This document shows, piece by piece, positions 1,558-7,415 of a stretch of 10,102 nucleotides of DNA. The stretch's first letter is position 1, and each line of letters starts with the position of its first letter. The notes under the pieces are model-generated. The model was not told the origin of the DNA. It was given only the letters and a program-made list of their open reading frames with translations, and made no database searches. This DNA is from Planctomycetota bacterium (GTDB lineage: Bacteria; Planctomycetota; Phycisphaerae; WQYP01). Position numbers and translations under genes: made by a program. The stretch covers positions 1-10,102 of the forward strand of contig JAKAZF010000051.1 of assembly GCA_021826605.1 (NCBI GenBank), given 5' to 3'.

Positions 1558-2577
1558 TCAATTCAGCCCCATGGCCTGGGGAAAGCCAGCGACAAGATTC
1601 ATATTTTCAATGGCCTGGCCGGCCGCCCCTTTGACCATGTTGTCCAACGCACTGATGATGACCCATCGGTTGCCATATTGGTAAATAGCCATATCAATAT
1701 AATTTGTATTGATGACATATTTTGTGCTGGGTGGCGCGCCCGTGCGAATGCGTACAAATGGGCTTGAACCATAGGCACTGCGCCACGCCTGCAAAGCCAG
1801 ATCGATGGTCGCAAGCACCGTCGGCTTGGTGTAAATGGTGGCTAAGATGCCTCGATCCATCGGCACGAGATGCGGCACAAAGGTGATGCCCACCTCTTTT
1901 CCGCTGCCTAATTTGATGCCCTCGGCAATTTCCGGTGCATGGCGATGTGTGCCTATGGCGTAGGCTTCAAATGACTCGTTCCGCTCCGGGAAGTGATGCT
2001 GGGGTACTGGATTGCGGCCAGCACCCGATATACCCGAGGCGGCGTTTACGATGATATCCTGCGAATCAATCAGGCCGGCCTTGACCAATGGTGCAAGCGG
2101 CAGAATGGCGGACGTTGTGTAACAGCCCGGATTGGCAATCAATTTCGCGCTGGCAATCTGCCGGGCAAATAAATCCGGCAAGCCATAGACCGCGTGCGCC
2201 AAATTTTCCGCGTCCGTGTGGGGGTGTTTGTACCACTTTTCATACAACCGCGTATCTTTAAGACGGTAGTCGGCGGATAAATCAATCACGCGCAGGCCCA
2301 CCGATAGCAATTCCGGTGCATACTGCATGGCTGTGGCATGCGGCACGCAAAGAAAGGCGATATCGGCTTTCTGCGCAATCACTTTTGGCTCGAAAGGTTC
2401 AATAGGTAAATCAATCCGCCCGAGCAATTCTGGAAATATTTCGCTAATTGGCTGTTCAGTTTTGCGGCTCGCCAGTACCGTCACCTTTACTTGCGGATGC
2501 CGTAATAACCACCGCAGCAGTTCAAGGGACGTGTAACCTGTAGCGCCCACAATGGCAGCGCGTAATCGATCGGGCAT
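1558..2577 (-). CDS. argC: N-acetyl-gamma-glutamyl-phosphate reductase ArgC
   Basis: ArgC reduces N-acetyl-gamma-glutamyl phosphate to the semialdehyde with NADPH, the third step of arginine synthesis, in the cytoplasm. The 339 residues are the usual length. The N-terminal Rossmann fold carries GATGYTSLEL (11-20), where many ArgC proteins have GYTGxEL. The catalytic cysteine is C152 in ANPGCYTT, followed by NAASGISGAGR (178-188), the catalytic-site HRH (211-213), FVPHLVPMDRG (233-243) and KGAAGQAIENMN (316-327). The ATG at 2577 has TGAGG about 7 bases upstream. The gene sits 120 bp after the GbsR/MarR-like gene and 27 bp before yraN. No other arginine gene is in the window. I see no ARG-box palindrome I would defend. 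Identity is certain. Confidence 0.97.
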   Translation of the reverse strand: MPDRLRAAIVGATGYTSLELLRWLLRHPQVKVTVLASRKTEQPISEIFPELLGRIDLPIEPFEPKVIAQKADIAFLCVPHATAMQYAPELLSVGLRVIDLSADYRLKDTRLYEKWYKHPHTDAENLAHAVYGLPDLFARQIASAKLIANPGCYTTSAILPLAPLVKAGLIDSQDIIVNAASGISGAGRNPVPQHHFPERNESFEAYAIGTHRHAPEIAEGIKLGSGKEVGITFVPHLVPMDRGILATIYTKPTVLATIDLALQAWRSAYGSSPFVRIRTGAPPSTKYVINTNYIDMAIYQYGNRWVIISALDNMVKGAAGQAIENMNLVAGFPQAMGLN

Positions 2578-3377: not shown

Positions 3378-4748
3378 TTATTTTTCAGGCGATGTCAACG
3401 GTACGATTGCACCCGCCGGTAGCAATTGCGGCAGTTTCCACATCATCACCAGGGCGGCACCCCACAACACGAGCGCCGCATAGGTGACAAGCCCCAAACC
3501 GCGCAGAATATAGAATGGCGGCGGCAAAACCGTAAGGATGTGCGACACCGCAAAAAACAGCAGCACCAAACCCAGCGGCCAGCCAATCGGCAATTTTTGG
3601 TCTTTCTCCCATTTAACCGCCAACAGCGTCGTTACCAGCGGCAACACCATACAGTAGTAATGCGGATGGCAAATGGGGACAATTGGCATCATGATGGTAA
3701 TCAGTGCACCGAGGAACAAATTGCGGTGCAGCGGCGTATGCTGTCGCGATTTTGCCTCCACCCACAGGGTTATCAAAACAAGGAGGATACTGATGGACCA
3801 GTGGGTAATTTTCATCCATTCCGCGGGTGGCGGGGCGGGCTGGCCAAAATGTACAGTATGGTCGATCATCGCCTCGAACGAGTTGGAATCGGTCTTATTG
3901 ACATCCAACAATTCCCGATCACGCGATGTATTGTGGTTAAGCCCCAAGGCCGGCTCAATTACCACCTGCATAAAGCGCGATTCCGCCGTGTAGGCATGAT
4001 GCGGCCCCATGACGATGGCTGGGATCACAATCACGCCCAGCAACAGGGCTGTCGCCGCCCCCACCAGCATCCGAAACCGCAAACGCCATAACGCATAAAG
4101 CAGCAGGAAGGCGGGAAATACTTTAATGGCAGCGGTAAGCCCCAACCAAAAACCACCCAGAATTTGCTTGCGATACGCTAAAGCCGCCCCCGCCAGACAA
4201 AACAACATCAACAACACAGAGTTGATCTGTCCGCGCGCCAACGCGCGGTCTAGGGCTGGCAAACAAACCAATATCGGTAACACACGCAGTGCCCACCAAC
4301 GTCGGCAAAAGCGATTCTGCATCTGCACCATAGGATCAGAGCTGGTCTTTTCAAACGCGTGGGCTATGAAACACGCGCCGAGCCATATGACCGCGATATT
4401 GATCACATACCAAAGACCCACGCTTACCGCATACGGTAACAAACCATTGCGGGATTGACCCGCCGGCGCATCGGCCAATGGCCAGAGCGCCACGGCCAAT
4501 AACGGCGGATAGTTATAATGCCAGCCATTTGTATCGGTAACGTTGTAAGGGTCTTTGTGCACCCGAATGGCCCAGGCAGCACGGAAGTAGGTATCGACGT
4601 CGGTCATGCGGCGTTTGAGAAAGGCGGATCGCACCTCCGTCACTACGCCGAAGATAATCACGCCCAGCAGCAGTGCAACCAAACCCACGCGCTCAAGGCG
4701 GTTGAGATAACCGAAGGCACCGGTCGTATTCAGGGGTTCAGCGGCCAA
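3378..4748 (-). CDS. GT87-family (DUF2029) polytopic membrane glycosyltransferase
   Basis: This 456-residue protein has roughly nine to eleven hydrophobic segments, beginning at about 21-37 and continuing near 104-131, 153-170, 174-192, 198-222, 228-248, and several more to the C-terminus. It looks like glycosyltransferase family 87: an early acidic motif TDVDTYFRAAW (49-59), then DPYN (66-69), a YNYPPLL segment (79-84), RGQIN (172-176) and AAIKVFPAFLLLYALWR (206-222). GT87 enzymes are GT-C type transferases that use polyprenyl-phosphate sugars, such as mycobacterial mannosyltransferases; donor and acceptor here are unknown. The start is TTG at 4748: an in-frame stop lies just upstream, and the next ATG (codon 48) would cut off the first membrane helix. 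GGAAGGT lies 9-15 bases upstream, somewhat far. A probable promoter is at 4842-4870. Confidence 0.85.
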   Translation of the reverse strand: MAAEPLNTTGAFGYLNRLERVGLVALLLGVIIFGVVTEVRSAFLKRRMTDVDTYFRAAWAIRVHKDPYNVTDTNGWHYNYPPLLAVALWPLADAPAGQSRNGLLPYAVSVGLWYVINIAVIWLGACFIAHAFEKTSSDPMVQMQNRFCRRWWALRVLPILVCLPALDRALARGQINSVLLMLFCLAGAALAYRKQILGGFWLGLTAAIKVFPAFLLLYALWRLRFRMLVGAATALLLGVIVIPAIVMGPHHAYTAESRFMQVVIEPALGLNHNTSRDRELLDVNKTDSNSFEAMIDHTVHFGQPAPPPAEWMKITHWSISILLVLITLWVEAKSRQHTPLHRNLFLGALITIMMPIVPICHPHYYCMVLPLVTTLLAVKWEKDQKLPIGWPLGLVLLFFAVSHILTVLPPPFYILRGLGLVTYAALVLWGAALVMMWKLPQLLPAGAIVPLTSPEK

Positions 4749-4870: not shown

Positions 4871-5149
4871 AAGTTAAAACCGGCCGTAAATCAAAAACCA
4901 TATTACCAGATTGCCTATTTATGCATCACTAACACTACGGGCGGCGCTTGAAGTAGGCGTGGAATGAAATGAGTGCACCAAATCGGGGATGGAATTGGTA
5001 TGAAAGTCCAATAATTGGGCGTCGGATATGCCGAAACAAACGGCGACGAGGCCGCGACCAAAATCTTATCCGTTTGGCATGCCACTTGCATCTATACATA
5101 TGTCGTCGTCAACGGCGACAACGCAGGTGGCCGATGCGGAGGTAAAAGC

Positions 5150-5206
5150 ATGGCAACCTGCAGCGGGCTGGAGTTGGTGCCCCTGCCCGCTTGGCTTGAA
5201 TTTTAG
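5150..5206 (+). CDS. Possible 18-residue small ORF inside the structured RNA
   Basis: ATG at 5150 opens an 18-codon frame, MATCSGLELVPLPAWLEF, ending in TAG at 5204-5206. A full GGAGG (5138-5142) sits 7 bases upstream, the best ribosome binding site spacing possible. GGAGG lies in the 10-base loop of hairpin H3, and the ATG is in its 3' arm. The stop codon directly abuts the 5' arm of the 11-bp stem at 5207. This layout would suit a dual-function RNA or a leader peptide whose translation changes downstream folding. Four of 18 residues are leucine. The peptide resembles nothing I know, and a chance GGAGG plus ATG is possible. Confidence 0.25.
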   Translation: MATCSGLELVPLPAWLEF

Positions 5207-5300
5207 TTTGCGTCCGTGAGCAGTCCGCTGCGAGTGGTGAGCGGTGCATTGAACTTGGAAATGACGGACGCAAAAACGATCTCGTTTCCTCCTCCGCCAG

Positions 5301-5340
5301 GCCGTGTGGACTTACCCTCCTCCACACGGCTTTTTTATTT
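5301..5340 (+). terminator. Strong rho-independent terminator
   Basis: GCCGTGTGGA (5301-5310) and TCCACACGGC (5321-5330) form a perfect 10-bp stem with a 10-base loop, followed at once by TTTTTTATTT (5331-5340). The T-run is only on the plus-strand side, so it ends plus-strand transcripts. All genes to its left are on the minus strand, so it must serve a transcript that starts within 4749-5300. Confidence 0.9.
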
Positions 5341-5344
5341 TATT

Positions 5345-6243
5345 AATTTTGCGAGTTGTCGGATTGTGCCAGCGACACCGGGACGGAACGATCCAAAAGC
5401 GCGAAGGGTCAATGGCCGCCGCGATCCGAGATTGTCAGCGTGGCGATTCCACACGAAGGAGGCGAAGACACTTTTATTCAAAAGAATCGCGATGGGCAAG
5501 AGCTGCGCTATGCATGGGGCCATGGACGTGTGCGTTATATACCCACCGGCTTGCCGGCGGTTGGTACGTTGGCCGATGGCGGACGGGCCGCGATGGGCGG
5601 TGGCCGATTTTGCATGGGCATAGACACCGGGCAAGCCCGGTGCTATGTATCTCGGCGGATGAGAACCGCAATATTTGCGATAGAAAAAAAATTGAATCGC
5701 GGAGAGACATGGATAATACATTGCTTACATATTGGCTATTTTCCGACAGTTGAGCCGTCGAGCTCAAACTATGAGTGTTATGAAAGGCGCATTCACCTGC
5801 ATATATCCGCCAAGAAAATATCCAGCGGGTGATGGCAAACTACTGGGATCGGCAAAAAAGCTTCTGTTTGTACGAGCATAATAGGATCGCATTCTGGCTA
5901 CCATTCGCTCCGACGATTCGGAAAGACGACCAAATCAACTTCGAAGCCACGCGAAGTACTGTGGCCGCCATCGTGACAGGCCCTCATCGCGCGGCGATCA
6001 CTGTGGACGCGGAATGCGAGACTAAATGCCATACACCTCTACGAAACAGCGGACGTGCCCGGGAATGCGATTCTCCTGAGGGTTTGCAAATCTCGTGGAA
6101 GTTATTGCTGCGGGTGCGATGGCAGCGTGCCCACGGGTTTAAGGAAACATTACCAATCCGTGGTGCGGAAGGATCGGCATGCAGTTTGCACGCCAGAACA
6201 AACCGAGGCTATGGTCGGCCCCGTCGGGCCGCGACATTCCCCG
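5345..6243. other. Long stretch without a supportable gene
   Basis: Open frames exist in several phases, but none has a good ribosome binding site or a recognisable protein pattern; they look like chance frames in GC-rich DNA. Visible structures: ACC(C)ACCG (5541-5548) pairing with CGGT(T)GGT (5558-5565), which overlaps an alternative CCGG/CCGG core with loop CTTG; CACCGGG-CAAG-CCCGGTG (5625-5642), a perfect 7-bp stem; TTGAGC/GCTCAA (5750-5767); and CGGCCC-CGTC-GGGCCG (6216-6231), which lies 13 bases before the Shine-Dalgarno of the nitrate-binding gene. TGGCCGAT occurs twice (5570-5577, 5601-5608). None is followed by a T-run. The region may hold the leader of the downstream gene, another RNA, or decayed coding DNA; I cannot choose. 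Confidence 0.5.
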
Positions 6244-6260
6244 AAAGGAGATCCGCATTG
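6244..6260 (+). promoter_or_regulatory. Ribosome binding site that fixes a TTG start
   Basis: AAAGGAG (6244-6250) lies 7 bases before TTG (6258-6260). The frame is open for another 143 codons upstream, but that part has no family resemblance, while homologous sequence of the NrtA/NasS family begins exactly here (LRFGFIRLIDAAALI). This decides the start in favour of TTG at 6258 rather than the ATG at 5829. Confidence 0.8.
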
Positions 6261-7415
6261 CGATTTGGCTTTATCCGACTCATCGACGCGGCGGCCTTGA
6301 TTGCCGCCCACGCAAAGGGCTTCTTCCGTGATCAGGGACTCGACGCATCGCTGGAACGGCAAATTGGCTGGATGAATGTTCGCGACAAACTCGGGTACGG
6401 CACACTGGATGCCTGCCACTCTCTGATTGGCATGCCCATCATGACGCAATTGGGAAGATCGGGCTTTGGTCGGCCCATGGTGGCGGTGATGGAGCTTGGG
6501 GCGGGCGGCAACAGTGTGGTCATATCCCGGCGGCTTGCAGAAATTGGTATTGACTCAGCGGCGGCGCTTAGTCAATTGATCCATTCAGGCCTGTATCGAC
6601 GCCAATTGGTTTGCGCCCATGTTTCAACCTTTTCCATGCACCATTACCTGCTGCGGGAATGGCTGGCCGATGCGGGTATCAATCCGGATCGGGATGTGCA
6701 GTTGACACAACTTACGCCGATGCAGGTAGCCGAGCATATGGCCAACCGCTACGTGGATATTTTCTGCGTTGGTGAACCATGGGGATTGATGGCCCAGCAG
6801 CAGGGGTGGGGCAAGGTGATCTGCGCCACGACTGACATTCTGCCGCACCATCCGGAAAAGGTACTCGCGGTAACGGAGAGTTTTATTGAAAGCCACCGGG
6901 AGGATGTGGTCAAAGCGATTGCGGCGTTGCTGCGGGCATGCGAATATTGCGCAAATCCCGCCAATCGCGAGGAACTTGCGGAACTTTTATCGCAAGAGGC
7001 CTACCTCGACATGGAGCCAGAATTGATATTATCGAGCCTCAACTCCGGCCCCGCCGATATGGGGTCCGGTGCCACCATTAAAAGCCGACCTGATGATTGG
7101 ACCTTCCGCGATTGGGGAGTGCGGTATGCGGCTCCGTCGGGTACGCATTTTGTATGGTTTTTGAAGCAGATGCAGCGCTGGGGAGAAGTTGACCCCAAAG
7201 CTGATCTCCAGCAACTTGCCCAACGCTGCGTCCGCAGTGATTTGTACACGGAAGCGGCGGCGATGCTTAATGTCGCTCCTCCGACGAGTGACTTTCCGGT
7301 CATGCCGTTGCGACGGGGTGTACTCAATCCGTTTGCTGTCGAAACGCGGCCAACAAATCCCCCATCCGGGCCGAAAAGCACGTTACGCCCGCCCTCACGC
7401 GCATTACAGGAATGA
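6258..7415 (+). CDS. Nitrate-binding protein of the NrtA/CmpA/NasS family, probably a cytoplasmic NasS-like sensor
   Basis: The 385-residue product matches the nitrate/bicarbonate-binding family of NrtA, CmpA and NasS: FGFIRLIDAAALIAAHAKGFF (3-23), GWMNVRDKLGYGTLDACHSL (37-56), STFSMHHYLLREWLADAGI (123-141), DIFCVGEPWG (167-176) and HPEKVLAV further on. The C-terminal part has the family's THFVWFLKQMQRWG and SDLYTEAAAMLN segments, followed by a proline-rich tail. Periplasmic NrtA has a lipoprotein signal; here none exists, because the family core starts at residue 1. That fits NasS, a cytoplasmic nitrate/nitrite sensor that holds the ANTAR antiterminator NasT. No nasT, permease or ATPase gene is nearby, so partner and ligand are unproven. 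A GC-rich hairpin (6216-6231) precedes the ribosome binding site. The stop at 7415 is followed by 424 bases before ilvB. Family call strong; the NasS versus transporter choice is inference. Confidence 0.87.
   Translation: MRFGFIRLIDAAALIAAHAKGFFRDQGLDASLERQIGWMNVRDKLGYGTLDACHSLIGMPIMTQLGRSGFGRPMVAVMELGAGGNSVVISRRLAEIGIDSAAALSQLIHSGLYRRQLVCAHVSTFSMHHYLLREWLADAGINPDRDVQLTQLTPMQVAEHMANRYVDIFCVGEPWGLMAQQQGWGKVICATTDILPHHPEKVLAVTESFIESHREDVVKAIAALLRACEYCANPANREELAELLSQEAYLDMEPELILSSLNSGPADMGSGATIKSRPDDWTFRDWGVRYAAPSGTHFVWFLKQMQRWGEVDPKADLQQLAQRCVRSDLYTEAAAMLNVAPPTSDFPVMPLRRGVLNPFAVETRPTNPPSGPKSTLRPPSRALQE

What the first reader, a model, noticed from the sequence alone, without database searches (positions are those of the whole stretch)
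4976..5340. Unassigned structured RNA of about 300-370 nt with its own terminator
Seen: six or more consecutive stems (5028-5080, 5101-5120, 5123-5161, 5162-5191, 5207-5274, 5274-5287) almost end to end, then a 10-bp terminator hairpin with a T-run. All upstream genes face the other way, so the terminator needs a transcript born in this gap. Known: the landmarks of tmRNA (tRNA-like 3' end), RNase P RNA (P4 core), SRP RNA and 6S RNA are not visible. Inference: a free-standing small RNA or a cis-regulatory element of a type I do not recognise. One 11-bp perfect stem plus a 13-pair stem in so short a stretch is hard to explain as chance.
Basis: partly seen in the sequence, partly recalled or inferred. 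Interest (0 to 1): 0.75.

Follow-up and report, generated by a model that had tools for sequence, protein, structure and literature searches.

The report
Sigma-54 small RNA mimicking anti-Shine-Dalgarno
This stretch of a planctomycete genome very likely encodes a small regulatory RNA, probably switched on by the sigma-54 transcription system, whose two exposed CCUCC patches look built to block the ribosome-binding sites of other messages; it belongs to an RNA family with no match in Rfam that recurs in two related bacterial families.

Summary
This module occurs in 18 of 28 genomes of the window's family and 16 of 26 of a second family that includes a Humisphaera genome (Phycisphaerae, Planctomycetota), up to 5 copies each. 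Over 38 copies CCUCCUCCGCC is constant, while 8 of 9 terminator-stem pairs change on both sides with 99.7% pairing kept. A sigma-54 -24/-12 site (5075-5090) stands upstream: exact in 15 of 17 own-family loci, 1 match elsewhere; a looser form in 22 of 29 second-family copies, 4 elsewhere. No Rfam match; Hfq found in 0 of 19 genomes. Best reading: a sigma-54-dependent trans-acting sRNA pairing anti-Shine-Dalgarno patches with mRNA ribosome-binding sites, like alpha-r14/cuckoo RNAs but not a member. Transcription, targets and repression are inferred; no target conserved beyond the genus was found. In some copies the module follows a CBM48 protein gene.

The parts
5075..5090 (+). sigma-54 -24/-12 promoter-like site, TGGCATG-CCAC-TTGCA
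   Evidence: matches TGGCAYGN4TTGCW; one of 4 exact sites in the 3.7 Mb genome; exact site in 15 of 17 own-family loci within 350 nt upstream of the core, 1 match in the other 266,196 strand positions
5101..5336 (+). inferred transcript (about 236 nt): start about 12 nt after the -12 GC, end in the T-run
   Evidence: inference from promoter geometry and terminator; fold z -3.8 for 5099-5338, 0 of 200 shuffles
5102..5119 (+). 5' hairpin GTCGTCGTCAACGGCGAC
   Evidence: sequence; a hairpin in the same place in the predicted fold of G003 (L003)
5123..5161 (+). stem GCAGGT/ACCTGC enclosing GCGGAGG (5136-5142), which could pair with the seed
   Evidence: sequence; GCGGAGG:CCUCCGC pairing in the MFE of the longer span
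5163..5190 (+). hairpin GCGGGC...GCCCGC
   Evidence: sequence; kept in G003
5207..5274 (+). long stem TTTGCGTCCGT/ACGGACGCAAA closing the 5' domain just before the seed
   Evidence: 11 bp perfect; kept in G003 with changes (two sequences only); a stem in the same place with other sequence in the consensus fold of genera g2, g3, g5, g6
5281..5299 (+). seed CUCGUUUCCUCCUCCGCCA, anti-Shine-Dalgarno-like
   Evidence: CCTCCTCCGCC in 38 of 38 aligned copies, CTCGTTTCCTCCTCCGCC in 32 of 38 (copies were collected with a model that contains the motif)
5301..5336 (+). intrinsic terminator: 10-bp stem (5301-5310/5321-5330), loop 5311-5320, T6 5331-5336
   Evidence: 9 modelled pairs: 99.7% of cells paired, 8 pairs with changes on both sides, 65 such cells, 0 of 500 shuffles
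5314..5320 (+). second anti-Shine-Dalgarno patch ACCCUCC in the terminator loop
   Evidence: CCCTCC or TCCTCC after the seed in 35 of 38 copies; unpaired probability 0.93-1.00 in 25 of 26 modelled transcripts, 0.67 in one
3378..4748 (-). GT87 glycosyltransferase gene, divergent neighbour of the RNA
   Evidence: Pfam PF09594; homologue on the same side in 10 of 17 own-family loci besides the window

Best explanation
The + strand of about 5101-5336 encodes a trans-acting small RNA made by sigma-54 RNA polymerase from the site at 5075-5090 and ended by the terminator at 5301-5336. Its working end is the 3' module: a linker CUCGUUUCCUCCUCCGCCA and a terminator loop ACCCUCC, both complementary to Shine-Dalgarno sequences (GGAGG). 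When an enhancer-binding protein activates sigma-54, the RNA accumulates, pairs with the ribosome-binding sites of a set of mRNAs and lowers their translation, without Hfq. The variable 5' domain would stabilise the RNA or tune exposure of the seed. Shown by sequence: conservation, covariation of the terminator stem, co-occurrence of the promoter site. Inferred: transcription, start site, pairing with mRNAs, repression, which genes.
For: Core found in 39 of 397 class genomes, 24 of 275 genera: 18 of 28 own-family genomes (family size), 16 f6 genomes and 5 weak hits elsewhere; f6 is 16 of 26 genomes with 1-5 copies (one of the 16, G083, is near the threshold). Of 36 contigs with the exact 19-mer in genome contigs, 31 have a hairpin right behind it, all labelled Phycisphaerae or Planctomycetota; one Phycisphaerales locus is cut off and the 4 from other phyla lack it. 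Stem covariation. CCUCCUCCGCC in 38 of 38, a second CCUCC-type patch in 35 of 38. Sigma-54 sites: 15 of 17 own-family loci, 22 of 29 f6 copies. RpoN in 49 of 53 genomes, and in 31 of 31 of those at least 90% complete and at most 5% contaminated. Hfq in 0 of 19 genomes while the control rang in 5 of 14 known genomes. G009 has two cores behind one promoter site. Precedent: NfeR1 uses three redundant CCUCCUCCC anti-SD motifs, kept while the stems around them differ, to silence ntrB, Hfq-independently (PMC10746234, passages).
Against: No transcript data. No target conserved beyond the genus: the 18-mer complement with up to 3 mismatches in 28 genomes showed, in the listed rows, only the RNA genes as exact sites (list truncated); the best own-genome start-site candidate, accB, keeps the 10-nt match GGCGGAGGAG in 2 of 4 species of the genus, 9 nt in a third, and at most 7 nt elsewhere. 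10 of 28 own-family and 10 of 26 f6 genomes have no hit, several of them over 90% complete. Two of 17 own-family loci (L079, L087) have no recognisable sigma-54 site. The linker patch is often partly paired in predicted folds (unpaired probability 0.03-0.91). The copies were collected with a model containing the seed, so its constancy is partly by construction; of five weak hits left out of the count, four lack CCTCCTCCGCC. The f6 promoter pattern was written after viewing those loci, and 7 of 29 copies lack it.
Confidence: 0.66

Rival explanations
1. The conserved 3' module binds a protein (an RNA chaperone, ribonuclease or ribosomal protein) and serves as a maturation or sequestration site; the CCUCC patches are recognised by the protein rather than by mRNA.
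For: Conservation extends past CCUCC to CUCGUUU (32 of 38 copies) without a conserved mRNA partner found; Hfq not found, so another partner is possible.
Against: CCUCC patches in two different structural settings (linker and loop) are kept while the stem changes, as in RNAs known to act by anti-SD pairing.
Confidence: 0.15
2. The module is an unusually conserved transcription terminator or 3' stabiliser that ends various sigma-54 transcripts, with no trans function.
For: It follows different upstream parts, including a CBM48-protein gene in f6.
Against: A terminator needs no fixed linker sequence upstream nor a fixed loop motif; the stem, the part a terminator needs, is what varies.
Confidence: 0.12
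3. A cis-acting leader or attenuator for a downstream gene, for example the NMT1-domain open frame that starts at or after 5829.
For: Same strand, about 490 nt upstream of that frame.
Against: NMT1 and IlvB of the window had no hit in the 17 own-family loci, whereas GT87 on the other side had hits in 10, so far as the loci reach; several copies per genome at separate places in f6.
Confidence: 0.04
4. A sponge for CsrA or a small coding RNA.
For: GGA motifs in the window's RNA; an 18-codon ORF after GGAGGT at about 5149-5205.
Against: The GGA of the own-family terminator arm is not shared by many f6 cores (alignment A3, output); the ORF's start codon is not kept in G003. CsrA itself was not searched for.
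Confidence: 0.03

Closest known systems
alpha-r14 / NfeR1 ('cuckoo' RNAs) of Alphaproteobacteria
   Same: identical CU-rich anti-SD motifs in unpaired regions, stems of differing sequence, Hfq-independent (PMC10746234 passages)
   Different: NfeR1 has three hairpins each with CCUCCUCCC and is activated by LsrB and repressed by NtrC; here one linker patch CCUCCUCCGCC and one terminator-loop patch ACCCUCC, a sigma-54-type promoter site, another phylum, no Rfam hit; direct sequence comparison not made
CcsR1-4 / CIN1 locus of Rhodobacter (DUF1127 gene followed by CcsR RNAs)
   Same: RNAs cotranscribed behind a small protein gene from an alternative-sigma promoter (PMC10253847 passages), as the f6 CBM48 copies seem to be
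   Different: RpoHI/RpoHII promoter, DUF1127 protein, processing by RNase E; here a sigma-54-like site and a CBM48 protein, processing untested; that CcsR RNAs carry CCUCC-type motifs is recalled (the passages gave none)
C-rich-loop sRNAs of Firmicutes such as RsaE/RoxS (recalled)
   Same: unpaired C-rich seeds complementary to Shine-Dalgarno sequences (recalled)
   Different: different hosts and promoters (recalled); no relation tested beyond Rfam

Membership tests
alpha-r14 / cuckoo RNA family | three hairpins each with CCUCCUCCC in unpaired regions (as described in PMC10746234) | tested here: not met
   one linker patch CCUCCUCCGCC and one terminator-loop patch ACCCUCC; CCUCCUCCC does not occur in the window's core
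alpha-r14 / cuckoo RNA family | match to an existing covariance model | tested here: inconclusive
   no Rfam match over 4976-5340 even at E up to 10 and none at gathering in 11 related loci; that Rfam holds this family is recalled, not checked
alpha-r14 / cuckoo RNA family | silencing of mRNAs by pairing at the translation start | not testable with these tools
   needs reporters; no conserved target found
tmRNA, RNase P RNA, SRP RNA, 6S RNA and other Rfam families | covariance-model match | tested here: not met
   no match overlapping 4976-5340 at E up to 10 among 4227 families; ARAGORN found no gene in the window
sigma-54-dependent genes | -24/-12 element TGGCAYGN4TTGCW conserved upstream | tested here: met
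   exact in the window and in 15 of 17 own-family loci, 1 in the remaining 266,196 strand positions; RpoN gene in the genome
sigma-54-dependent genes | loss of transcription without RpoN or its activator | not testable with these tools
   needs a mutant or in vitro transcription
intrinsically terminated sRNA | GC-rich hairpin directly followed by a T-run, kept by covariation | tested here: met

The most novel reading that the evidence does not exclude
Phycisphaerae carry a portable 3' silencer module: an anti-Shine-Dalgarno linker plus terminator that has been joined to different sigma-54 transcripts (free sRNAs with unrelated 5' domains, and the end of a glycogen-binding-type CBM48 mRNA), so that sigma-54 activation also imposes a broad, Hfq-free decoy competition with the 16S rRNA tail for mRNA Shine-Dalgarno sites.
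Probability: 0.3. Interest if true: 0.75.

Novelty: new variant of a known kind. Interest (0 to 1): 0.6.

Why it matters
I found no described sRNA of this sort in Planctomycetota: four searches of the held library listed 3 of 3, 15 of 153, 15 of 639 and 12 of 12 papers, and none announces one in its title, abstract start or the passages I read; papers outside this library were not searched. No Hfq was found in the 19 genomes tested. A conserved, multicopy, sigma-54-linked anti-SD RNA would be an entry point to post-transcriptional control in the phylum and an apparently independent case of the alpha-r14 design, testable in cultured Tepidisphaeraceae if cultured strains carry it.

Tried and rejected
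Rfam and ARAGORN: no match. DNA similarity in plasmids: none. One long conserved target: none seen in the listed rows. accB as a conserved target: full complementarity confined to part of the genus. The other GGAGGAG-N3-11-ATG sites of the own genome (32; reversed-pattern control 16) were not followed: of the 30 with loci, 18 ATGs open frames under 100 aa; among the 12 others panC and accB were recognised and two gave no NCBIfam match, the rest were not annotated. Presence of RpoN does not separate genomes with and without the RNA. Phylum-wide R2 search: 10 of 392 genomes, the own genome plus nine weak ones; L169 looks genuine, L166/L168/L174 possible, the rest probably chance. CsrA sponge and small ORF: no supporting conservation.

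Rows dropped: L001, L002 and L017 (copies of the window or of L012). One search took 45 sources and gave 46 matches; one search took 37 sources, leaving out the near-identical L011, L022, L026 and the weak L062, L063, L065, L066, L067, so the covariation and motif counts rest on 38 of those 46. In one search, 12 sequences were given and 9 were distinct. The synteny test used the 17 contigs with the own-family hairpin, 17 of the 36. The contigs and the loci come largely from the same genomes and are not independent.

Full report
WHAT IS THERE. The excess belongs to 5099-5338; 4976-5097 alone is weak (z -1.9, 7 of 200 shuffles as low). Rfam has no match over this interval even at E up to 10, and ARAGORN finds no tRNA or tmRNA in the window.

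CONSERVATION LIES AT THE 3' END. A DNA search of 41 genomes, the own one included, found matches in 15; apart from the own genome and same-genus G003 (aligned from 5071) they fall within window 5273-5352. The core is CUCGUUUCCUCCUCCGCCA followed by a hairpin with ACCCUCC in its loop and a T-run. A covariance model of the core hit 39 of 397 class genomes and 24 of 275 genera: 18 of the 28 genomes of the window's own family (family size), 16 genomes of a second family f6, and five weak hits in four other families. All held f6 genomes searched: 16 of 26 have 1 to 5 copies, one of the 16 (G083) only near the threshold. A scan for the exact 19-mer in named genomes gave 36 contigs. In 31 a hairpin follows, all labelled Phycisphaerae, Phycisphaerales, Phycisphaera, Humisphaera or Planctomycetota (one of them, L098, without CCUCC in the loop); one Phycisphaerales locus is cut off at its end, and the four labelled Nitrospinota, Bdellovibrionales, Lachnospiraceae and Nitrospiraceae lack the hairpin. 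The Humisphaera contig has the same length as the f6 contig G108:C289, and Humisphaera belongs to Tepidisphaeraceae, so f6 is probably that family.

COVARIATION. In 38 copies the terminator stem pairs in 99.7% of cells; 8 of 9 pairs change on both sides, 65 cells in all, and 0 of 500 shuffles reach these values; slid controls pair in 22-44%. The alignment was fitted to the model structure, which favours it, and related copies inflate cell counts; but the middle of the stem differs between the families (GCCGTGTGG against GCYGCACGG) and again in the second G009 copy. Meanwhile CCTCCTCCGCC is present in 38 of 38 copies, CTCGTTTCCTCCTCCGCC in 32 of 38, and a second CCCTCC or TCCTCC in 35 of 38. 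A caveat: the copies were found with a model that contains the motif, and of five weak hits left out, one (L067) has CCTCCTCCGCC and four do not. Still, linker and loop stay fixed while the stem drifts, which is what a pairing or binding seed would give. The loop patch is predicted unpaired (0.93 or more) in 25 of 26 modelled transcripts; the linker patch varies from 0.03 to 0.91.

PROMOTER. Each of the 16 own-family rows first examined (15 loci, one with two cores behind one site) has TGGCAYG-N4-TTGCW 115-310 nt upstream. On the named contigs, largely the same genomes, it is exact in 15 of 17 own-family loci within 350 nt upstream, against 1 match in the other 266,196 strand positions; L079 and L087 lack it. 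The own genome has 4 exact sites in 3.7 Mb; with up to one mismatch 95 against 39 for the reversed pattern. The f6 copies carry a looser GG-N10-G[CT] site in 22 of 29 within 520 nt, against 4 in 125,739 strand positions outside; this pattern was composed after looking at the loci. RpoN was found in 49 of 53 genomes, and in 31 of 31 of those at least 90% complete and at most 5% contaminated. With GC at 5088-5089, the start should lie near 5101 (inference).

ONE MODULE, SEVERAL TRANSCRIPTS. The 5' part differs. Own-family RNAs have a structured domain whose sequence is shared only among near relatives; in several genera a long stem stands just before the seed (nine distinct sequences in one set, two in the other). 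In 11 of 13 f6 copies aligned there is a second conserved element, GAGCGCGGTTGGTTCCC (or nearly so) plus a hairpin. Six f6 copies (L036, L040, L042, L043, L044, L060) follow an open frame whose last sense codon lies 38-64 nt upstream; in five the first ATG of a protein of CBM48/AMPK1_CBM type comes about 20-30 nt after a TGGCACR-N3-TTTGT site (Pfam run on three of the proteins); the sixth, L043, has such a site too with a longer open frame. GT87 is the divergent neighbour in 10 of 17 own-family loci besides the window; of the seven others three have under 900 nt on that side, but four have 1.9 to 7.9 kb without it.

MECHANISM. Both patches are complementary to GGAGG, the Shine-Dalgarno core. 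Anti-SD action has been shown for NfeR1, whose three CCUCCUCCC motifs are redundant, whose stems vary and which is Hfq-independent (PMC10746234, passages). Hfq was found in 0 of 19 genomes tested, while the control search rang in 5 of 14 known genomes. Against: I found no target conserved beyond the genus. accB in the own genome has GGCGGAGGAG four bases before its ATG; the 10-nt match is kept in 2 of 4 species of the genus, 9 nt in a third, and not elsewhere among 25 genomes. In the own genome GGAGGAG-N3-11-ATG occurs 32 times against 16 for the reversed pattern. Pairing with many Shine-Dalgarno sites through short contacts is therefore likelier to me than a single partner, but this is inference.

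CONTEXT IN PRINT. PMC12316311 (12 of 17 passages) describes predicted sigma-54 control, mostly in Planctomycetia, of chaperones, universal stress proteins, mechanosensitive channels and csrA; sRNA, small RNA and non-coding occur 0 times in its main text. That makes a stress or nutrient signal plausible. Searches on planctomycete small RNAs listed no paper that announces such an RNA; PMC2864571 lists a Rhodopirellula-1 motif (one passage read), whose sequence I did not compare. The paper on the cuckoo RNA family was not held.

VERDICT. Real, conserved small RNA family: about 0.93. Sigma-54 dependence of the window's copy: about 0.85. Anti-SD trans repression given a real RNA: about 0.7. It works like alpha-r14 RNAs but fails their motif and hairpin description, so it is filed as a new variant of a known kind.

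Noticed in passing
L248 12679-12697 (-), IMGVR_UViG_3300047169_000098: A contig of the viral collection carries the exact 19-mer followed at the same spacing by a 10-bp hairpin and TTTAATTT, but the loop lacks CCUCC and the sigma-54-like pattern was not found in 450 nt upstream: perhaps a phage-borne mimic, perhaps chance.
   Followed up: partly
L037, L038, L048, L050-L057 (f6), upstream of the core: A second conserved element, GAGCGCGGTTGGTTCCC plus a long hairpin of variable sequence, forms the 5' part of 11 of 13 aligned f6 copies; it could be an RNA domain of its own.
   Followed up: partly
L036, L040, L042, L044, L060 (f6): A protein of about 105-115 aa with a CBM48/AMPK1_CBM glycogen-binding-type domain, behind a sigma-54-like site, precedes the module (Pfam on three of them).
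   Followed up: partly
L012 (G009), cores at 1504-1563 and 1612-1671 (-): Tandem duplicate of the core behind one promoter site; the upstream copy has a stem altered by compensatory changes and a weaker T-run.
   Followed up: partly
window 6175-6190 (+): A one-mismatch sigma-54-like site CGGCATGCAGTTTGCA lies within the long open frame 5829-7415 that holds an NMT1_2 domain; if the true start of that gene is downstream, it could be its promoter.
   Followed up: no
L169 (family f15), L166, L168, L174 (family f18): More distant look-alikes: CU-rich linker plus terminator, some with CCUCC-type loops, hinting at a wider group in Phycisphaerae.
   Followed up: partly
window 5149-5205 (+): An 18-codon ORF after GGAGGT within the RNA; its start codon is not kept in G003.
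   Followed up: partly
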